The notes beneath the pieces are model-generated. The model did not search any database, was not told the DNA's origin, and saw only the letters and a list, made by a program, of their open reading frames with translations. A DNA stretch of 33,277 nucleotides from assembly GCA_021778015.1 (NCBI GenBank), contig JAJYCX010000021.1, positions 1 through 33,277 of the forward strand, given 5' to 3'. The stretch comes from Pseudomonadota bacterium. GTDB lineage: Bacteria > Pseudomonadota > Gammaproteobacteria > UBA1113. Below, one piece after another: positions 10,942 through 32,694 of this stretch (positions are counted from its first letter, which is position 1; every line of letters begins with the position of its first letter). A program made the translations under genes and the position numbers.

Positions 10942-11150
10942 GCGTATATCATTGCTGAAAGCAATCATCCACTAGAGGGTTGTCATCCTCGGAGTACCGA
11001 GTACAGGCTCCGATCGGGGATCCGGTTTCAAATCAAGTTTTTCCTGGATCCTCGACTGCGGCCTCGCGGCCGCGTCGAGGATGACAACGTTTTAGTACTG
11101 CGTTCGCAGAAAGTATTGCTCTCGCATCTTGAGATAGAATAGGTATATAT
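10942..11150 (+). repeat. Dispersed repeat family A, copy A5
   Basis: It occupies most of the 315-bp gap after lysS. The core starts GGTTGTCATCCTCGGAGTACC with the module GAGTACAGGCTCCGATCGGG, which recurs inverted in copy A7. GGATCCGGTTTCAAATC, CTGGATCCTCGACTGCGG and GTCGAGGATGACAACG follow. The right end TAGTACTGCGTTCGCAGAAA .. CTCGCATCTTGAGATAGAAT .. GGTATATAT equals the inverted left end of copy A3. Confidence 0.88.
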
Positions 11151-24606: not shown

Positions 24607-24747
24607 ATGAACTCTCTCCAAATTGATATTCGATTGATTCTACGTGGTTTTTTGAGAGGTTGTAAAGAGTCTAATCATCCAGTTGCCGTATTATTTTCTT
24701 AAACCGAGTTTTAATCAAAGCACAGATATCATCAATCACAGGGGAGA

Positions 24748-26448
24748 TTAAGCCGTTATATTCAGAATATCAGGGTTGCGGCTGGAGGGAATATTGATGC
24801 TTATATTATCCACAACAATAAAGCAACCATTAGCCTCTGGTTTATTACTTACAGTCCACCTACCTATGTAAATGCGATTATTGTATATGGTTCGGCATAT
24901 ATAATCACGTGAAAGATAAACTTGTTTGCGTTCTTTATCAATAATAATGTCACCCCCTAATAGGATGGAGGATGCAGGATGCGAATAGGCCGGATCCCAG
25001 CCTATATTCTTTGTTTGACCCGTGAGTACTTGAAAAGTGCTGCTTTGTTTGACTGTATTTGTTGTAACGACACTACATTTATTATGGAATAATTCGCCGA
25101 GAACCCACTTATGGTCATACTCTATTTTACAGGCATATAAAGGATCTTTGCCTCGATACCCTAAGACAATGGGCGAGTTGAGTTGTGATGAATTTGTCCA
25201 AGTTATTCCTGCAGCTTCTAATGCTTTTGCAGCATTTTGCATATCCGTTTCTAGTTGTCCTTGTAGAGCGCTTATTAGTGTTGGCGATATCTGTGGTGTT
25301 GGCGTTAGTTGGGGTGCTGGTGTTAGATTTTTCTTATATCTTACAGCAGGAGAAAATTGTACTACGATGCTCAAACCTAAGGTTACTAGAATGAACGCTA
25401 TCGCAATGCTTATATTGAGCCTGGGCAAGAGGCTAAAGGTTTTTTTATTTTTGCGATAGAGTACGGCTATTGCATAAGCAACGGGATAGACTATCAAAAA
25501 CAGGCAATTGCTACATATTATCAAATTAGACGGATAGGGCATATTTTGAAAATTAAATAGAACAGGAGCATTGGCTAAGATTGCAAATAACGGCAACGTT
25601 AACATGAATAGCTTGATACAGATAAAGAGGTATTTAGAATAAGGGGTATTGGCGTTACCATCTTGATAAGAGGCATTGATAAAAATAATACCCAATAGGG
25701 TAATACTTGAAAATAATGTTATATGTTGAGAGAAAGGGTGGGCCCCTAAAAACACCATGTTAAATAAGGATATGATTAAAAACGCTAACACCATGATGGC
25801 TAAAAAAGGATAAAGATAACGAAATAATTGCAATAATAACCATCGTAAACTATCAATAATATTAGGTCGTTGTCTGCCTAAAAATATTCCCACCGAAAAT
25901 AGAAAGGGGAAAACAAACAGAGTAAACCGGGTCGTTAACAATAAATCTTTTAGAAAATTAATGTGCACTAAGGTAAATAGACTTGCACTAAGATAGAGTA
26001 TAACCCAAGCCAATCCAGAAAAAACACAGGAAAAAATCAATAAACAGAAGGTATTCCATACCGTATAGAAAAGAGTGCTGTATTGATAATGGTAGCTATT
26101 GTCACGATGATAGGCCCAATGAAAACTATGGATCATATAAGTTGCTAGTGATAGGCTGATGAACATTTGAATGGTTGTATTAATGTCCAGTGCATGACGG
26201 GCATTGTTAAAAACCCCGATCATGATGGCGATACAGAATGCAGCAAGGGCGCTGCTCAGGAGCAAACGAATGTTTTTTGAACCATCATAGCTAAAAATGG
26301 TCAATATGCCCCACGCATTAATAAATGCTAACACAAAGGCAGATTGATAATGATAAGATAAGCCGTTGATAAGGCCTATAAGAAAGCCTATTGTAGAAAG
26401 AATTAACAATCCCCTAGGGATCGTTTCGCTGTTGGTCGAAGGTTTCAT
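24748..26448 (-). CDS. DUF4153-like polytopic membrane protein with C-terminal DM9/DUF3421-like domain
   Basis: A 566-residue protein. Residues 10-365 contain about 11-12 hydrophobic helices in the pattern of DUF4153 membrane proteins. A Pro/Thr-rich linker follows (TPAPQLTPTPQISPT, about 378-393). The last ~165 residues are soluble. They hold two similar units, PLYACKIEYDHKWVLGELF and VYLSRDYICRTIYNNRIYIG, each ending in a Cys-containing strand. This spacing recalls the DM9/DUF3421 repeat (LYxxRxxxxxxxxxGKxxxxxGCxIxY). That assignment is by eye and uncertain. The soluble part is probably exported and could bind a ligand or surface glycan. Expression probably starts from a promoter at 26485-26513 that touches an operator-like site. 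Confidence 0.7.
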   Translation of the reverse strand: MKPSTNSETIPRGLLILSTIGFLIGLINGLSYHYQSAFVLAFINAWGILTIFSYDGSKNIRLLLSSALAAFCIAIMIGVFNNARHALDINTTIQMFISLSLATYMIHSFHWAYHRDNSYHYQYSTLFYTVWNTFCLLIFSCVFSGLAWVILYLSASLFTLVHINFLKDLLLTTRFTLFVFPFLFSVGIFLGRQRPNIIDSLRWLLLQLFRYLYPFLAIMVLAFLIISLFNMVFLGAHPFSQHITLFSSITLLGIIFINASYQDGNANTPYSKYLFICIKLFMLTLPLFAILANAPVLFNFQNMPYPSNLIICSNCLFLIVYPVAYAIAVLYRKNKKTFSLLPRLNISIAIAFILVTLGLSIVVQFSPAVRYKKNLTPAPQLTPTPQISPTLISALQGQLETDMQNAAKALEAAGITWTNSSQLNSPIVLGYRGKDPLYACKIEYDHKWVLGELFHNKCSVVTTNTVKQSSTFQVLTGQTKNIGWDPAYSHPASSILLGGDIIIDKERKQVYLSRDYICRTIYNNRIYIGRWTVSNKPEANGCFIVVDNISINIPSSRNPDILNITA

Positions 26449-26484: not shown

Positions 26485-26513
26485 ATTGTAGGCTGTTTTT
26501 AAGGACTTGTAAA
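26485..26513 (-). promoter_or_regulatory. Candidate promoter of the DUF4153-like gene
   Basis: On the minus strand TTTACA (26508-26513) and TACAAT (26485-26490) are separated by 17 bp. The operator-like site O1 (26513-26534) abuts the -35 box. Confidence 0.55.
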
Positions 26514-26534
26514 ACTAACCTGATCGGGGTGATT
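26513..26534. promoter_or_regulatory. Operator-like palindrome O1
   Basis: AACTAACCT-GATC-GGGGTGATT. The right half matches the consensus AATCAnCCC-N4-GGGnTGATT fully and the left half 6 of 9. Its centre is exactly 50 bp from that of O2. It abuts the -35 box of the DUF4153-like gene. Confidence 0.55.
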
Positions 26535-26562
26535 TTATGAGGTTTTGATGCCATAATGGGCT

Positions 26563-26584
26563 AATCATCCCGATTGGGGTCAAA
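26563..26584. promoter_or_regulatory. Operator-like palindrome O2
   Basis: AATCATCCC-GATT-GGGGTCAAA. The left half is a full match to the shared consensus and the right half is weaker. It lies just upstream of the presumed uup promoter. Confidence 0.55.
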
Positions 26585-26617
26585 TGAGGTGCTATCGCAA
26601 AAATAACTGAAGTGTTG

Positions 26618-26623
26618 TATACT
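26618..26623 (+). promoter_or_regulatory. Candidate -10 box of uup
   Basis: TATACT, 35 bp before the uup ATG. The sequence 17 bp upstream (TCGCAA) is a poor -35 box. Confidence 0.4.
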
Positions 26624-26658
26624 TCATGTTCAGAAAAATAAGGTAACTCATTAGTAAA

Positions 26659-28512
26659 ATGTCGCAAATCCACTTAAAAAATATTTCCATTGCTTTTGGC
26701 GCTGATCCTCTTTTAGATAAGGTCGATTTAATCATTGAAGCAAAGGAACGTCTTTGTATTTTAGGCCGTAATGGCACAGGTAAATCTACTTTGCTCAAAT
26801 TGATCAATGGCGAAATAAAACCGGATGGTGGTGAAATCAGCTATCAAAGCGGTATTACGATTGCGAAGCTAGATCAGGATGTTCCTAGCAATATGAGTGG
26901 AACGGTTTATAAGGTTATTACTCAGGGCCTGGGTAAACTGGGCCAGCTGTTAGCGCAATATCAGGACTTAACACATAAATTGACCGATGATAGTTCTGAA
27001 CAAATATTGAATGAACTGCATACGGTACAACAATCCTTAGACAAAGAGCATGGTTGGGATTTATCTTATAAGATAGAATCTATTATTTCGCTCTTAGCAT
27101 TGCCAGCCGATATGGAATTTTCAAGCCTTTCTGGCGGATTAAAGCGTCGAGTATTGTTAGGACAAGCCTTAGTTAAAGCCCCCGATATTATTCTTTTAGA
27201 CGAACCTACGAACCATTTAGAAATAGAAGCCATTGATTGGTTAGAAAAATTTTTAAAAGGGTTTTCGGGCACCGTTATTTTTATAACGCATGATCGTACC
27301 TTTATGCAGAGTATTGCAACGCGCATGGTGGAATTAGACCGTGGTAAGTTAAGCAGTTATCCGGGCAATTATCAACATTATCTAGACCGTAAGCAACATG
27401 AATTAGAGGTAGAGCAAACGCAAAATAGAGAATTTGATAAAAAGCTGAAACAAGAAGAAGCGTGGATCCGTCAAGGGGTGAAGGCGAGACGTACGCGTAA
27501 TGAAGGGCGAGTACGCGCATTAGAAAAATTACGTGCAGTACGTCAAAGTCGGCGCGAGCAGATAGGTACGGCCAAATTACAAATACAAAAAAGCGAGCAA
27601 TCTGGAAAAATAGTGATTGAAGCAAAGAATATCAGTTTTAACTATCCGGATAAAAAAATTGTGAATGATTTCTCCACAACGATTATACGTGGGGATAAGA
27701 TTGGGCTAATAGGTCCTAATGGCGTAGGCAAAACAACGCTATTGAGAATACTATTGGGTCAGTTGCAGCCACAGCAAGGCTCTGTGCGTCATGGTACAAA
27801 ATTAGAAATTGCTTACTTTGATCAGCTGCGCGCTGATTTAGATGAAAGTAAAAGTGTAGCAGATAATATCAGTTATGGTGATCAATATGTTACGGTGAAT
27901 GGTCAGCTTATTCATATTATGACCTATTTGCAGGATTTTCTGTTTTCGCCACAGCGAGCGCGATCACCCGTCAGCTCTCTTTCCGGCGGCGAACGCAATC
28001 GTTTATTGTTAGCAAGATTGTTTACTAAAGCCGCTAATTTGTTAGTATTAGATGAACCCACCAATGACTTAGATCTAGAAACTTTAGAGTTATTAGAATC
28101 TTTGTTGGTAGACTATACTGGCACACTACTCTTAGTCAGTCATGATAGAAGCTTTTTAGATAATACCGTGACGAGCACTATGGTTTTCAATGGTGATGGC
28201 AAGATAGAAGAATTTGTAGGCGGTTATGATGATTGGTTGCATCAGAAAAAAATGGTAACGGAAAATGAAAAAGCCACAGCCGCTAAACCGCAAACTACGA
28301 ACGAAGACTATCAAACCCGTAAAGAAATGGCGGCCTTAGAGCGTAAAATTGAAAAATGCGAGTTAAAGCAAAAAGAGCTGAAACATAAGTTGACTGACCC
28401 CGAACTCTATCTGCCAGAACAAGCTTCGCAATTGGAAAAGCTACAACAACAACTGCAACAGTGTGAGAGTGAGCTTACTGAATTGGTAGGGAAGTGGGAG
28501 AAGTTTGTTTAA
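26659..28512 (+). CDS. uup: ABC-F family ATPase Uup
   Basis: A soluble tandem ABC ATPase without membrane domains, of the Uup subfamily linked to ribosome function and to suppression of transposon excision. It has 617 residues. The first Walker A is GRNGTGKS (36-43), with signature SSLSGGLKRRV and Walker B IILLDEPTNH. The ABC-F linker is the charged helix QEEAWIRQGVKARRTRNEGR typical of Uup. The second Walker A is GPNGVGKT, with SSLSGGERNRL and LLVLDEPTNDLDLE. The last ~75 residues form the Uup C-terminal coiled coil (EMAALERKIEKCELKQKELK), which binds DNA in E. coli Uup. The stop lies 2 bp from the convergent HTH gene end. Confidence 0.95.
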   Translation: MSQIHLKNISIAFGADPLLDKVDLIIEAKERLCILGRNGTGKSTLLKLINGEIKPDGGEISYQSGITIAKLDQDVPSNMSGTVYKVITQGLGKLGQLLAQYQDLTHKLTDDSSEQILNELHTVQQSLDKEHGWDLSYKIESIISLLALPADMEFSSLSGGLKRRVLLGQALVKAPDIILLDEPTNHLEIEAIDWLEKFLKGFSGTVIFITHDRTFMQSIATRMVELDRGKLSSYPGNYQHYLDRKQHELEVEQTQNREFDKKLKQEEAWIRQGVKARRTRNEGRVRALEKLRAVRQSRREQIGTAKLQIQKSEQSGKIVIEAKNISFNYPDKKIVNDFSTTIIRGDKIGLIGPNGVGKTTLLRILLGQLQPQQGSVRHGTKLEIAYFDQLRADLDESKSVADNISYGDQYVTVNGQLIHIMTYLQDFLFSPQRARSPVSSLSGGERNRLLLARLFTKAANLLVLDEPTNDLDLETLELLESLLVDYTGTLLLVSHDRSFLDNTVTSTMVFNGDGKIEEFVGGYDDWLHQKKMVTENEKATAAKPQTTNEDYQTRKEMAALERKIEKCELKQKELKHKLTDPELYLPEQASQLEKLQQQLQQCESELTELVGKWEKFV

Positions 28513-28514
28513 GA

Positions 28515-28736
28515 CTACTTTAAATTATCTCCGCCTATTTGAATATCTAAACCTAACATGGCCAAAATATGCAATGACTTACCTATATGGCAGGATTCTT
28601 TACCTTGCTCTAACTCACGTACAAAACGCACACCTACGCCGCTGACGGCGGCCAGCTGTTCTTGTGTTAAGCCTTGTTGCTTGCGCGTAGTGCGCACGAT
28701 CTGGCCCAGTTTTTGTATTTTCGTCATTTGTGTCAT
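28515..28736 (-). CDS. HipB-like (Y4mF family) XRE transcriptional regulator, orphan
   Basis: A 73-residue single-domain helix-turn-helix protein. The HTH spans about residues 10-45 (LGQIVRTTRKQQGLTQEQLA then AVSGVGVRFVRELEQGK), and LHILAMLGLDIQIGG matches the C-terminal strand of HipB/Y4mF antitoxins. Such proteins normally sit upstream of hipA kinase toxins and repress their own operon; no hipA is here, so this is an orphan regulator or a relic. The palindrome O3 lies directly upstream of the ATG and covers the ribosome site (GAGAGGG), suggesting autoregulation. Related palindromes occur 50 bp further and at the uup/DUF4153 divergent promoter. Confidence 0.85.
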   Translation of the reverse strand: MTQMTKIQKLGQIVRTTRKQQGLTQEQLAAVSGVGVRFVRELEQGKESCHIGKSLHILAMLGLDIQIGGDNLK

Positions 28737-28737
28737 A

Positions 28738-28759
28738 AATCAACCCTCTCGGGATGATT
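28738..28759. promoter_or_regulatory. Operator-like palindrome O3
   Basis: AATCAACCC-TCTC-GGGATGATT: both halves match with a single mismatch between them. It lies 2 bp from the start codon of the HipB-like gene, over its Shine-Dalgarno and a possible -10 box (TAAAAT on the minus strand, 28757-28762). Confidence 0.65.
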
Positions 28760-28783
28760 TTAACAGGAGTAGTTAAAAAAGAA

Positions 28784-28813
28784 AACAAATAACCCCGATC
28801 GGGGTTATTTGTT
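28784..28813. promoter_or_regulatory. Perfect 30-bp palindrome O4
   Basis: The two 15-bp arms AACAAATAACCCCGA and TCGGGGTTATTTGTT are exact reverse complements with no loop. The inner 22 bp fit the O1-O3 pattern with GATC at the centre. Its centre is exactly 50 bp from that of O3. It lies between the divergent HipB-like and ATPase genes. A no-loop palindrome favours protein binding over termination. Confidence 0.75.
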
Positions 28814-28871
28814 ATATTGTAGATTTTAATTCAAAGTAGTAATTTATTAGTGTTATTTACTGAAAGTAAAC

Positions 28872-28900
28872 TTGACTTTTAACAAGAAATCTGCAATAAT
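28872..28900 (+). promoter_or_regulatory. Promoter of the RloA-like ATPase gene, probably giving a leaderless mRNA
   Basis: TTGACT (28872-28877), a 17-bp spacer and AATAAT (28895-28900). The usual start site 6-7 bp downstream falls at 28906-28907, the A of the best ATG. No ribosome binding site precedes that ATG. Confidence 0.6.
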
Positions 28901-28906
28901 GTGATT

Positions 28907-30112
28907 ATGATACATAAAATAACGATTGAAAATTTTTTCTCCATTTCAGAAGAGCAAGAGCTGAGCTTTAAAGTTCCTGCCAATGCCCCTGATTTGGCCT
29001 ATTTTAAGCCTACTTTGTCGAACACGGAGCTGCGTTTGCCCTCGGTTATAGGGTTTTTTGGCGCCAATGCGTCGGGTAAAACGACTATTTTGCGTGCGGT
29101 TATTTCAGCTTTTATATTTGCATGTAATAGTTTTGATGCACAGAGTATCCCATACCCTTTCTTTACGCCGTATAGACAAAAAAGTTGGTGTAGTGTGCCT
29201 ACTAAAATCATGATTGAATTCGATGGCAAACTGAACGAAGAATCTCCATCTCAAGTATTTCGCTATGAACTGCATATTAGCCATAAGCCAGAGCCTATGG
29301 ATTTCAGTGGTAAGACCGTTGCTTATGAGGCATTGTCTTATGCCCCGGCTGGAAAATTTAGATCTCTTTTTAAACGAGAAAAGCAGAATATATCTTTCGG
29401 GCGTGAATTTGGAGTATTTCATGCAAACGATCCTAGAACAGAAAGCATACGTCCCGATGCTAGTGTGATTAGCACGCTGGCTAAATTCAATCATCCACTG
29501 TCTATTTATTTAAAACATATTATGGGACAACAAGTAGAAACTAACATAAGAGGTATTGGAAAAGTTCGGCCCGGTGCTTCACAATGGTTACAAATCTATC
29601 ATCGTAATAAGAAGTGTTTAGATGCGTTAAACAAAGAATTACCGCGTCTAGATATGGGCTTGAGTAATATGGTTGTTGAACAGGGCCCACAAGGATTCTT
29701 TGCTAAGTTCTATCATGAAGGCTTAGATGATTTTATCTTTTTCGATGAAGAATCGCAAGGGACGCAACGGTTCATCGAAATTTTCCCACGCTTGCATTAT
29801 GTATTAGAAATGGGCGGTATTGCAATTATCGACGAAATCGACACGGATTTACATCCGATGTTACTACCAGAGCTCTTTAGATGGTTTGCCGATCCCAAAC
29901 GTAATCCTAAAGGCGCTCAATTGCTCTTTACGGCGCACAATCCGGGTCTATTAGATCATCTGGAAAAAGAACAAATTTTCTTTACAGAAAAACCCAGTGG
30001 GCAAGGAACTTCTGTATATGGTGGAAAGGATATCCAAGGCTTACGACGCGAACCTAGTTTAATGAAAAAATATCTTTCAGGCGAACTGGGTGCTGTGCCG
30101 CACATTGGGTAG
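28907..30112 (+). CDS. RloA-like AAA/ABC-type ATPase of a defence cassette
   Basis: A 401-residue ATPase of the RloA/AAA15-AAA21 type, related to the ATPase halves of PARIS (AriA) and OLD-like systems. The N-terminus MIHKITIENFFSISEEQELS is the first SMC-like strand. Walker A is GANASGKT (52-59), then a long insertion and a signature-like DEESQGTQRF. Walker B is IAIIDEIDTDLHP, followed by LLFTAHNPGLLD with the switch histidine. The ATG at 28907 is chosen over GTG 28901 because the latter would lie within 1 bp of the -10 box. The next gene encodes a RloB-like TOPRIM protein 7 bp downstream. Sensing by the ATPase and nucleolytic action by the partner is the known logic of such pairs; the trigger here is unknown. 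Confidence 0.88.
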   Translation: MIHKITIENFFSISEEQELSFKVPANAPDLAYFKPTLSNTELRLPSVIGFFGANASGKTTILRAVISAFIFACNSFDAQSIPYPFFTPYRQKSWCSVPTKIMIEFDGKLNEESPSQVFRYELHISHKPEPMDFSGKTVAYEALSYAPAGKFRSLFKREKQNISFGREFGVFHANDPRTESIRPDASVISTLAKFNHPLSIYLKHIMGQQVETNIRGIGKVRPGASQWLQIYHRNKKCLDALNKELPRLDMGLSNMVVEQGPQGFFAKFYHEGLDDFIFFDEESQGTQRFIEIFPRLHYVLEMGGIAIIDEIDTDLHPMLLPELFRWFADPKRNPKGAQLLFTAHNPGLLDHLEKEQIFFTEKPSGQGTSVYGGKDIQGLRREPSLMKKYLSGELGAVPHIG

Positions 30113-30119
30113 AGGATAA

Positions 30120-30662
30120 ATGAAAATACAACAAAGAACGCCATTCTTTTTTGCTGTGGAAGGGGAAAGCGAGCAATCACTTGTTAAATGGTACCAAAGT
30201 CTTTGTGATCAGCAGGGATTACACTTGCACTTAGATCCTCAAAACTTGTCTGGTGGTGGTTATAAAAGCATGCTGGAAAAAGCCGTGCTTCTGCAAGAAA
30301 GGAAAGGTGCAAAACAATCATTCTTACTGGTAGATAGCGATCGAAGTCTAAGCCAAGGAAGAGATGATTCTTGGTCCATTGATGATCTTAAGAGAAAAGC
30401 ACACAAAGAAGACATCCTTGTTTGCGCTCATCATCCTAATATAGAAGGTTTTTTCTTACGTTTATTCTCAGGAAATGAACATTTAGAGCCACTACCAAAA
30501 GAAGCTGAGAAACTGTTGAGAAAAAAAGAATGGCCTGACTATGAAAAACCAGAAAATGCAAAGAGAATAGGTGAAAAGTTCACATTGAAAGATTTACTGC
30601 GGCTTGCTAAGGTTGAACCGGATCTGAAAGCTCTTCTATCTATTTTGGGATTGAATAAATAG
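30120..30662 (+). CDS. RloB-like TOPRIM-fold protein
   Basis: The 180-residue partner of the ATPase encoded just upstream. A TOPRIM-like core is visible: the N-terminal acidic motif FFFAVEGESEQSLVKWY with Glu14, and LLVDSDRSLSQG with Asp72 and Asp74. The RloB-type NxExFFLxLF element is HPNIEGFFLRLFSG, near residue 110. These residues would coordinate Mg2+ for phosphodiester cleavage. RloA-RloB pairs were first noted as restriction-linked ORFs inside type I restriction loci; this copy has no hsd genes beside it. AGAGGA precedes the ATG, and the 7-bp gap suggests a single operon. Confidence 0.85.
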   Translation: MKIQQRTPFFFAVEGESEQSLVKWYQSLCDQQGLHLHLDPQNLSGGGYKSMLEKAVLLQERKGAKQSFLLVDSDRSLSQGRDDSWSIDDLKRKAHKEDILVCAHHPNIEGFFLRLFSGNEHLEPLPKEAEKLLRKKEWPDYEKPENAKRIGEKFTLKDLLRLAKVEPDLKALLSILGLNK

Positions 30663-30718
30663 AGGGTAAAGAGATAGGTTCTATACTTGCATGGTAAATT
30701 ATATAGTAGGATGAAATT

Positions 30719-31690
30719 ATGTCAGATGAACTTGCGCATTATACAACAGAGCAGGGACTAGCAGCTATACTAAGCACAAAAAAACTTTGGGCTACGCATT
30801 GGCAGTTTTTAAATGATTCTAGTGAGCTGCAGCATGGAATGCACATTATAAATTGTATTTTTGATGATGTTAGGAAGTCAATGCCCAAGGAAGATCTGCT
30901 GAGGAGGTTTATTGAACAAGAAGAGCCAAAGTTTCTACAAAACTTGTGGTTTAGTGGGATTGCTCCAAACCAAAATGTCCCTGAATTCTTTATAACCTCG
31001 TTTTCTAGGATATCCGATGAGAATAAGGATGATGGAATATTAAGTCAGTGGCGTTCCTATGGTGATTTTTCTATTGTGTTTTCGCGAGATAGTTTAAGAA
31101 AATCATATCGTTTTTTTTCGAAAAAATGTAAAGAACATGTTGGGCTGGATCTTCAAGAAGGATGTCTGGAATGCAAAAAATTTATTTTTGCTCATACACT
31201 TGATTTGGTTAGATATCCACAGGACATTGCTGAACTCGAAAAAGAAGGTTATAAAGATTCCCTTGAAGTTATAAAAAAATACGCTCCTATTTTCATCAAC
31301 GGTGTTAAAGAAGGAGCGTTAAACATAACTTTAAACGAGTTCGATCTTTTTGTAAAGGCGATTACCGTATTGCTTACAACCATAAAGCATCCAGGATTTA
31401 ATGAAGAAAAAGAGTTCAGATTTGCTTGTTTAAACAGAGTAGAGCGTTATGGTGGTGGTTATGATTTTGAAAGCCCATATGAAGTAGCCATAAAGAATAA
31501 TGCACCCAGGTTGGAAGTGGATTTTTCACCAGAGGCCATAAAAAGAATCATTATTGGGCCTCAGCCTAATCAAGATCAAAAGGTAGTTATCGTAAGACAC
31601 TATTTAGATCTATATGGATATAAGAGTGTTGATGTGGTGAAGTCGTCCATCCCTTATAAGAAAAACATTTCAGCAGAAATGAATCATTGA
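30719..31690 (+). CDS. DUF2971 domain protein
   Basis: A 323-residue protein starting MSDELAHYTTEQGLAAILST, followed by KKLWATHWQFLNDSSELQHG. This is the DUF2971 opening (xxxYTxxxxLxxIlxxxxlw and LNDxxE). WRSYGDFSIVFSR (about 110-122) and HPGFNEEKEFRFACL with IKRIIIGPQPNQDQ near the end are also family-like. The fold is thought to be related to ADP-ribosyltransferases, but activity is unproven. It lies 56 bp after the RloB-like gene on the same strand with its own ribosome site (AGGATGA). DUF2971 genes are frequent passengers of defence islands, so it may be a third component or a neighbour. Confidence 0.85.
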   Translation: MSDELAHYTTEQGLAAILSTKKLWATHWQFLNDSSELQHGMHIINCIFDDVRKSMPKEDLLRRFIEQEEPKFLQNLWFSGIAPNQNVPEFFITSFSRISDENKDDGILSQWRSYGDFSIVFSRDSLRKSYRFFSKKCKEHVGLDLQEGCLECKKFIFAHTLDLVRYPQDIAELEKEGYKDSLEVIKKYAPIFINGVKEGALNITLNEFDLFVKAITVLLTTIKHPGFNEEKEFRFACLNRVERYGGGYDFESPYEVAIKNNAPRLEVDFSPEAIKRIIIGPQPNQDQKVVIVRHYLDLYGYKSVDVVKSSIPYKKNISAEMNH

Positions 31691-31727
31691 GAGACTTTAG
31701 TCTTTATTGTAAAGTTCAACATCTTCC

Positions 31728-31845
31728 TGGATTGCCGCGCTGCACTCGTCTGGTTTTGTTTAATTCAATAGTTCAGTTATTATTGTCTCTCACAGTCTCT
31801 GCTATAAATCGATTACTCGTTTGCTCGCAATGACGAATCCCGAGT
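31728..31845 (+). repeat. Intergenic repeat-like element (family C)
   Basis: It starts CTGGATTGCCGCGCTGCACT and ends GCTCGCAATGACGAATCC. These ends resemble the widespread proteobacterial intergenic repeat GGATTGC(n)CTCGCAATGACG. Only one copy is visible in this window, so the call rests on resemblance. Confidence 0.4.
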
Positions 31846-31937
31846 GTAACAGCTATACCGTGAAATTTTAAAGTTTGTTGTGATTAAATAAATTCAAAGA
31901 AACATCTCCCTAAAAGCTATTATTTATTTTTTACTTC

Positions 31938-32407: not shown

Positions 32408-32694
32408 TATATCCATTGCTAGTGTAGATGTAATGCTGAAAGTCGCATAAGCTAGAACGTTGTCATTCTCGATCAGGCCGCGAGGCCGCAGTCGGGGATC
32501 CAGGAAAAACTTGATTTGAAACTGGATCCCCGACCTTCGGTCGAGGATGACAATGTGCTGGATCCCCGATCGGAGCCTGTACTCGGTACTCCGGGTATCG
32601 AGGATGACAATATGCTGAATTTTCACCTACAGTGAAGATTACACTGTTTGTAGCAGATATTTATTCGCATCTTGTAACGCAACGGATACAGTAA
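32407..32694 (+). repeat. Dispersed repeat family A, copy A7
   Basis: The left end GTATATCCATTGCTAGTG resembles the inverted right ends of A2 and A3. The core at 32458-32611 holds GTTGTCATTCTCGATCAGG, CAGTCGGGGATCCAGG, CTGGATCCCCGACCTTCGG and GAGGATGACAATGTGCTGG. An inverted copy of the A5-specific module follows (CGGAGCCTGTACTCGGTACT). The right end CGCATCTTGTAACGCAACGG is degenerate. It separates csrA from the upstream RNA region. Confidence 0.85.

What the first reader, a model, noticed from the sequence alone, without database searches (positions are those of the whole stretch)
26513..28813. Two pairs of operator-like palindromes, each exactly 50 bp centre to centre, linked to an orphan HipB-like regulator
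Four sites fit AATCAnCCC-N4-GGGnTGATT: O1 26513-26534, O2 26563-26584, O3 28738-28759 and O4 28784-28813 (the last a perfect 30-bp palindrome). O1-O2 and O3-O4 centres are both 50 bp apart, although the pairs are about 2.2 kb from each other. O1 abuts the -35 box of the DUF4153-like gene, O2 precedes uup, O3 covers the ribosome site of the HipB-like gene, and O4 lies between that gene and the RloAB cassette. HipB proteins bind multiple palindromic operators cooperatively and bend DNA. The inference is an uncharacterised mini-regulon joining a membrane protein, an ABC-F factor, the regulator and possibly the defence cassette.
Basis: partly seen in the sequence, partly recalled or inferred. Interest (0 to 1): 0.75.

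Follow-up and report, generated by a model that had tools for sequence, protein, structure and literature searches.

The report
Broken hipBA operon with leftover operators
The palindrome pairs are the usual control sites of a hipBA-type toxin-antitoxin operon: one pair still sits before the surviving antitoxin gene, whose toxin gene is gone, and the other looks like the leftover promoter of a second such operon rather than a new regulatory network.

Summary
The four sites are real and non-random, but only O3 fits the stated consensus exactly; O1 and O2 have 3 mismatches each. The 50-bp spacing is the normal promoter layout of hipBA operons with this HipB: of 20 distinct related loci examined, 14 have such palindromes 48-50 bp apart ending at the hipB start, two more have variants at 49-50, four do not. 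O3/O4 are therefore HipB autoregulatory operators. hipA follows hipB in 15 of 16 near relatives; here only its last 58 nt remain, at 24693-24750. O1/O2 are weak, lack promoter features, and end where DNA shared with sister genome G008 begins. They align with a second pair in G008 that also lacks a hipB. In 15 genomes scanned, a pair away from an intact hipB appeared only in G000 and G008, though the scan had limited sensitivity. Best reading: an orphan antitoxin with its own operators plus a hipB-promoter relic. Residual HipB control of the neighbouring membrane-protein gene is possible but unshown.

The parts
28515..28736 (-). hipB: intact 73-aa HTH antitoxin of the Y4mF/HipB family, without hipA
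   Evidence: TIGR03070 76.7 bits, cut-off 71.65; 93% aa identity to G007 HipB; dN/dS 0.088 against G007
28738..28759 (-). O3: hipB-proximal autoregulatory operator
   Evidence: exact consensus match; same kind of site at the same position in 14 of 20 distinct related loci examined
28784..28813 (.). O4: hipB-distal operator, perfect 30-bp palindrome
   Evidence: centre 50 bp from O3
24693..24750 (-). relic of the hipA 3' end (last 58 nt)
   Evidence: 90% nt identity to the end of G007 hipA; tblastn 24 aa, 75%, E 6e-6 at 24686-24757
26513..26534 (.). O1: weak operator, probable relic
   Evidence: PWM 20.2; 3 of 38 operators of relatives score as low or lower; overlaps a predicted -35 box by 1 nt
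26563..26584 (.). O2: weak operator, probable relic; DNA shared with G008 starts at the next base
   Evidence: PWM 17.3; 1 of 38 operators of relatives scores as low or lower; blastn edge at 26585
26485..26513 (-). sigma-70-like promoter TTTACA-17-TACAAT facing the 24748-26448 gene
   Evidence: 10 of 12 matches; shuffles give one promoter on average in the same stretch
24748..26448 (-). 566-aa membrane-type protein (by eye) with a DM9-like C-terminal part; its stop codon overlaps the hipA relic
   Evidence: sub-threshold DM9, E 4.8e-4; of the 10 other family genomes only G003 has a match, 31%
26659..28512 (+). uup-like ABC-F ATPase gene between the two pairs
   Evidence: best NCBIfam hit Uup NF050005, 841 bits, below its 900 cut-off; 97% aa identity to G008
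28872..28900 (+). predicted promoter of the defence cassette, TTGACT-17-AATAAT
   Evidence: starts 59 bp after the end of O4

Best explanation
The locus is the remains of hipBA toxin-antitoxin operons. O3 and O4 are the two autoregulatory operators of hipB: HipB dimers bind the palindromes, one over the start region and one further upstream, and repress transcription (position and conservation shown; binding inferred). All of the toxin gene hipA but its last 58 nt is missing, which leaves hipB as an orphan antitoxin (shown by sequence). O1 and O2 are most likely the operator pair of a second hipBA-type promoter, cut off at or next to its hipB start codon and now wedged between the DM9-type gene and uup (similarity and degeneracy shown; relic status inferred). 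HipB may still bind O1/O2 weakly, where it would touch the -35 box of the membrane-protein gene, but nothing shows that this is used.
For: One search examined 20 distinct loci with a HipB relative (L087 is the same contig as L015). In 14 (L005-L013, L015-L019) 2-3 palindromes of this sequence precede hipB; their 24 successive spacings, counted by hand with low-scoring hits in between left out, are 50 (15), 49 (8) and 48 (1) bp. Two more (L020, L090) have a variant core at 49 and 50 bp. hipA follows hipB in 15 of 16 loci, two of them cut by the contig end. A 58-nt hipA tail lies at 24693-24750 on the same strand as hipB, and the assembly holds no other close hipA (one partial match, 31%). O3 and O4 score 29.4 and 30.2 against 38 operators of relatives (range 13.1-33.6, median 25.1); O1 and O2 lie at the bottom, 20.2 and 17.3. 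The O1-O2 spacer has no significant hipB-promoter signal in either direction (p 0.16, 0.06) but matches the spacer of a second G008 pair, 17 of 28, p 0.0008, one of 15 comparisons; the aligned 68 columns run to AAATG. Homology to G008 starts at 26585, the base after O2. At that edge G008 has a decayed leftward hipB promoter (spacer p 0.005; 21 of 28 identical to the window's hipB spacer). In 15 genomes, 16 of 18 places with at most 1 mismatch are at hipB promoters.
Against: Of the 20 loci, L089 (58% identical HipB, same family) has one good site and no 48-50 bp partner, and L091-L093 (41-48%) have no such sites. O1/O2 kept recognisable cores although the promoter spacer is not recognisable, as selection for HipB binding would give, and O1 sits at a good -35 box. 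No hipB or hipA coding trace follows O1/O2 in either direction. A family-wide blast with the second G008 pair did not list O1/O2 at E up to 1, so that homology rests on a short pairwise alignment; the G007 hipBA promoter also matches O1/O2 rightward (60 nt, 68%, E 0.001; spacer 14 of 28, p 0.004), so the parent promoter is unsettled. The scan saw the hipB array as two or more sites in only 7 of the 13 genomes other than G000 and G008, one site in 5 and none in 1, so pairs elsewhere could be missed. How hipB with its operators lies right of uup in G000 while G008 has the fossil promoter left of uup is unresolved.
Confidence: 0.72

Rival explanations
1. Co-opted regulon: after loss of hipA, orphan HipB was kept as a transcription factor, and O1/O2 were retained or acquired so that it controls the DM9-type membrane gene and uup in addition to itself.
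For: hipB is intact, dN/dS 0.088 against G007 (this covers the whole branch, not only the time since hipA was lost); O1/O2 cores persist although the promoter spacer is not recognisable; O1 overlaps a -35 box; E. coli HipB represses relA, eutH and fadH (Lin 2013 as cited in PMC10305079, passages seen).
Against: O1 and O2 are among the weakest sites, O2 no better than the decayed near site of G008 (17.3 v 17.0); operators are not significantly better kept than the spacer against the second G008 pair (34 of 44 v 17 of 28, Fisher p 0.18); matches of this region in G009 and G007 begin only after O2; G008 without a close HipB keeps one core-perfect and one decayed pair; no extra pair was seen in the other 13 genomes, within its limited sensitivity; no promoter for uup overlapping O2 was found.
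Confidence: 0.2
2. O1/O2 and O3/O4 are sites of a different regulator or a dispersed intergenic repeat unrelated to HipB.
For: G008 keeps a core-perfect pair without a close HipB in an assembly rated 91% complete.
Against: The motif is tied to hipB promoters in Alpha-, Beta- and Gammaproteobacteria and is not repeated elsewhere in G000 at the same quality.
Confidence: 0.04
3. Chance palindromes.
For: O1 and O2 each have 3 mismatches to the stated consensus; O2 (17.3) is only just above the best score in 20 resampled windows (16.4).
Against: 0 of 100 shuffles give as many single or paired matches; the same layout recurs in relatives.
Confidence: 0.01

Closest known systems
hipBA of Escherichia coli K-12
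   Same: HipB-type HTH antitoxin with several palindromic operators upstream of hipB; the G007 HipA is related to E. coli HipA (PDB 2wiu, E 7e-46)
   Different: E. coli operators are TATCC-N8-GGATA (consensus recalled, found four times) with spacings 28, 39 and 28 bp, not CCCGAnCGGG at 49-50 bp; the window lacks hipA
hipBA1/hipBA2 of Caulobacter crescentus
   Same: [quoted passage not shown] the Asticcacaulis locus L017 has CCCGATCGGG-type sites at 48-49 bp
   Different: Caulobacter keeps hipA; its repeats were not read here
hipBST of Legionella pneumophila
   Same: HipB with three evenly spaced operators upstream of its own gene, 53-bp inter-operator gaps (PMC10653801, passages seen); HipB(Lp) 8ezt is the best PDB match of the window HipB (E 4e-8)
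   Different: three-gene system with a split kinase and other inverted repeats; no hipS or hipT seen here
hipB promoters of the more distant relatives L021-L084 (mostly Clostridia and Treponema)
   Same: arrays of CCC-N4-GGG palindromes before hipB
   Different: core TATACCC-N4-GGGTATA, spacing mostly 40-41 bp or twice that (pairs found in 24 of 62 loci scanned, 23 of the 24 at 40-42 or 80-83 bp)

Membership tests
HipB / Y4mF antitoxin (TIGR03070) | match over the curated cut-off | tested here: met
   76.7 bits v 71.65
HipB / Y4mF antitoxin (TIGR03070) | binds palindromic operators before its own gene | not testable with these tools
   sites are present and of the kind seen in 14 of 20 distinct related loci, but binding needs an assay
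functional hipBA toxin-antitoxin operon | hipA directly downstream of hipB | tested here: not met
   only the last 58 nt of hipA were found, at 24693-24750
functional hipBA toxin-antitoxin operon | 2-3 operators 48-50 bp apart ending at the hipB start (layout seen in near relatives) | tested here: met
   O3/O4
HipB regulon (operators controlling other genes) | operator pairs at other promoters, recurring in relatives with HipB | tested here: not met
   only O1/O2 in G000; none seen in the other 13 genomes (own hipB array seen as two or more sites in 7 of 13); G008 has one pair but no close HipB
HipB regulon (operators controlling other genes) | HipB changes expression of the flanking genes | not testable with these tools
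   needs binding and expression assays
HipBST | hipS and hipT beside hipB | tested here: not met
   hipB is flanked by uup and the AbiL-like cassette

The most novel reading that the evidence does not exclude
Loss of a TA toxin leaves behind an antitoxin and phased operator pairs that neighbouring genes can capture: orphan HipB here would still occupy O1/O2 and act as a small local regulator of the DM9-type membrane gene (and perhaps uup), a toxin-antitoxin promoter turned into a stand-alone regulatory module.
Probability: 0.2. Interest if true: 0.5.

Novelty: new member of a known kind. Interest (0 to 1): 0.3.

Why it matters
It explains an apparent new regulon as toxin-antitoxin debris and offers a usable signature: phased operator pairs, 48-50 bp apart in the near proteobacterial relatives and mostly 40-41 bp in more distant ones, mark live or dead hipBA promoters. 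It is also a natural case of an antitoxin outliving its toxin, where one can ask whether the orphan is decaying or has been kept as a regulator.

Tried and rejected
Chance rejected. A dispersed repeat rejected. O4 as a terminator: the scan flags it on the minus strand, toward hipB, but its position and sequence match the distal operator of relatives, so terminator use is not favoured. O1/O2 as an inherited part of the DM9-type gene's promoter: the only relative found, in G003 (L109), shows no such site in the 400 bp printed (read by eye). More sister loci for O1/O2: family and order searches returned the same 11 genomes. hipB coding traces after O1/O2 or after the G008 pairs: none by tblastn at E below 0.5; a short open stretch after the second G008 pair looked hipB-like by eye but has no support. 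Evolutionary order: two models stay open, (a) a block holding the DM9 gene, O1/O2 and uup replaced the body of one hipBA operon, or (b) two hipBA-type modules flanked uup and were exchanged. The hipA tail in line with hipB favours (a); the leftward promoter fossil left of uup in G008 favours (b). Synonymous divergence G000-G007 is 0.38 for hipB and 1.28 for uup, which suggests that hipB moved horizontally and blurs both. Statements on print rest on seven searches; Schumacher 2015 was not held and is known to me by recall and by citation in other papers.
Full report
OBSERVATION. All four sites are where the finding puts them and both pairs are offset by exactly 50 bp. Only O3 fits the stated consensus exactly; O4 has 2 mismatches and O1 and O2 have 3 each. 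O4 is a perfect 30-bp palindrome. They are not chance: at up to 3 mismatches there are 4 sites in the window against a mean of 0.07 in shuffles, and the 50-bp paired core gives 4 strand-matches against a mean of 0.04; 0 of 100 shuffles reached 4 single sites and none reached 4 paired matches. In the whole 2.02-Mb assembly (83.6% complete) the 22-mer is found at 9 places, 4 of them these, against 3 for the reversed control. In G000 the paired core at up to 2 mismatches is found only at these two pairs.

WHAT O3/O4 ARE. The 73-aa protein is a HipB/Y4mF antitoxin over its curated cut-off. A scan of one genome per species confirmed 424 relatives and returned the best 80 loci, and 11 family genomes gave 13 more matches. 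I examined the upstream DNA of 20 distinct loci: 15 of the 16 best (L014 has none) and L089-L093; L087 is the same contig as L015 and is not counted. In 14 of the 20 (L005-L013, L015-L019) palindromes of the same sequence precede hipB, 48-50 bp apart: 24 successive spacings, counted by hand with low-scoring hits in between left out, are 50 (15), 49 (8) and 48 (1). The nearest site ends 0-4 nt before the likely hipB start (by eye), as O3 does. L020 and L090 have variant cores at 49 and 50 bp. L089 (58% identical) has one good site and no partner at that distance, and L091-L093 (41-48% identical, L092 being a second HipB relative of G000 itself) have none. hipA follows hipB in 15 of 16 loci (L005-L020; L016 and L019 cut by the contig end); the exception is L017, Asticcacaulis currens. 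So O3/O4 are the autoregulatory operators of a hipBA-type operon. More distant relatives (mostly Clostridia and Treponema) have the same plan with another core: a dyad-pair filter found pairs in 24 of 62 loci, 23 of the 24 at 40-42 or 80-83 bp, with no pair in control stretches; the filter is strict, as it found 50-bp pairs in only 2 of 15 proteobacterial loci. E. coli K-12 has four sites at 28, 39 and 28 bp.

WHERE HIPA WENT. In G007 hipB and hipA overlap by ATGA. In the window hipB runs one codon past that point and stops, next to the uup end. The last 58 nt of hipA survive at 24693-24750, 90% identical to G007 hipA, on the same strand, overlapping the stop codon of the 24748-26448 gene (tblastn E 6e-6). 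No other hipA or hipB piece was found by tblastn in the window or in the two G008 stretches at E below 0.5, and the rest of the assembly gave one partial 31% hipA match. hipB is intact and shows dN/dS 0.088 against G007 (5.5 non-synonymous, 14.5 synonymous changes); this covers the whole branch and does not prove selection after hipA was lost. Synonymous divergence is 0.38 for hipB against 1.28 for uup, which suggests that hipB moved between these lineages after they split; hipB has only 48 synonymous sites.

WHAT O1/O2 ARE. Against a position matrix of 38 operators from relatives (leave-one-out range 13.1-33.6, median 25.1), O3 and O4 score 29.4 and 30.2, O1 20.2 and O2 17.3; 3 and 1 of the 38 are as low or lower, and the best of 20 resampled windows reached 16.4. 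The 28-bp spacer between O1 and O2 has no significant hipB-promoter signal in either direction (p 0.16 and 0.06). The nearest genome, G008 (Uup 97% identical), has no close HipB. DNA shared with G008 begins at 26585, the base after O2, and ends at 28528. At that same edge G008 has a decayed leftward hipB promoter: spacer 21 of 28 identical to that of O3/O4, an ATG in the right place, the near site degraded (17.0) and the far site gone (-2.3). G008 has a second, well preserved pair right of uup (L121:2524-2595; 30.0 and 27.9), also without a hipB that tblastn can see. O1/O2 align to that second pair over 68 columns up to AAATG; spacer 17 of 28, shuffle p 0.0008, one of 15 comparisons. Against this, a family-wide blast with the G008 pair did not list O1/O2 at E up to 1, and O1/O2 also match the G007 hipBA promoter rightward (60 nt, 68%, E 0.001; spacer 14 of 28, p 0.004). 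So O1/O2 are best read as the operators of a second hipB-type promoter cut off at the hipB start; which promoter it came from is open.

REGULON TEST. In 15 genomes (G000, G007, G008 and the 12 in which L006-L013 and L016-L019 lie) the 22-mer with at most 1 mismatch occurs at 18 places, 16 of them hipB promoters by position; the others are a single site (G014:C29) and one site of the second G008 pair. At up to 2 mismatches no genome but G000 and G008 shows a pair away from hipB. The scan is not fully sensitive: of the other 13 genomes it showed the hipB array as two or more sites in 7, as one site in 5 and not at all in 1 (G012). Still, nothing points to a general HipB regulon in this group. 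Operator preservation does not track HipB either, since G008 keeps one core-perfect and one decayed pair. In favour of local control, O1 overlaps by one base the -35 box of a TTTACA-17-TACAAT promoter toward the 24748-26448 gene, but one promoter is expected by chance in that stretch. The defence cassette has a predicted promoter at 28872-28900, 58 bp past O4, so it is an unlikely target.

MECHANISM. Shown: intact hipB, its conserved kind of operator pair, loss of hipA, a degenerate second pair. Inferred: HipB dimers fill O3 and O4 and repress hipB. [quoted passage not shown] the structural paper itself was not held). With hipA gone, repression would rest on HipB alone. Weak binding at O1/O2 is possible.

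WHAT IS KNOWN. HipB autoregulation through palindromic operators (PMC8262856, passages); regular inverted repeats before Caulobacter hipBA1 and hipBA2 (PMC7029023, passages); three evenly spaced operators before Legionella hipBST (PMC10653801, passages); E. coli HipB acting on relA, eutH and fadH (PMC10305079, passages). Papers that use the term orphan antitoxin exist (listing only). A fixed 49-50 bp spacing for this operator type was not seen in the passages I read or in the listings; most subscription papers are not in that library.

VERDICT. A correct and careful observation with a mostly ordinary explanation: a toxin-antitoxin operon that lost its toxin, with its own operators and one leftover pair. 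The idea that the orphan HipB still acts on its neighbours remains open at about one in five.

Noticed in passing
28901-30662: The cassette named RloAB matches PADLOC AbiLi (E 7e-64) in its ATPase; the 180-aa partner has no significant Pfam, NCBIfam or PADLOC match. Possibly an AbiL-type two-gene defence cassette.
   Followed up: partly
24748-26448: 566-aa protein with a weak DM9-like C-terminal part; among the 10 other family genomes searched only G003 has a relative (31%), so it may be acquired.
   Followed up: partly
28515-31886, with L121 and L124: The stretch between uup or hipBA and the csrA-htpG genes is a variable spot: a DUF4143 ATPase, an oxidoreductase and a beta-lactamase-like gene in G008, hipBA with a DUF4143 ATPase in G007, hipB with the AbiL-like cassette and a weakly DUF2971-like gene here (csrA, htpG, oxidoreductase and beta-lactamase-like are labels by eye).
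   Followed up: partly
L017:4995-5315: Asticcacaulis currens carries hipB with three operators at 48-49 bp but no hipA within 2.5 kb after it; an ORF resembling the HipA kinase by eye lies on its 5' side (L017:3363-4493). A second case of hipB without its usual hipA.
   Followed up: partly
L021-L084: hipB promoters of more distant relatives carry TATACCC-N4-GGGTATA arrays, mostly 40-41 bp apart, about one helical turn shorter than the 49-50 bp of the near relatives.
   Followed up: partly
window 32562-32611 and 10990-11021; L092:1336-1386: A short repeat of about 30-50 bp is shared between two places in the window and another contig of the same genome.
   Followed up: no
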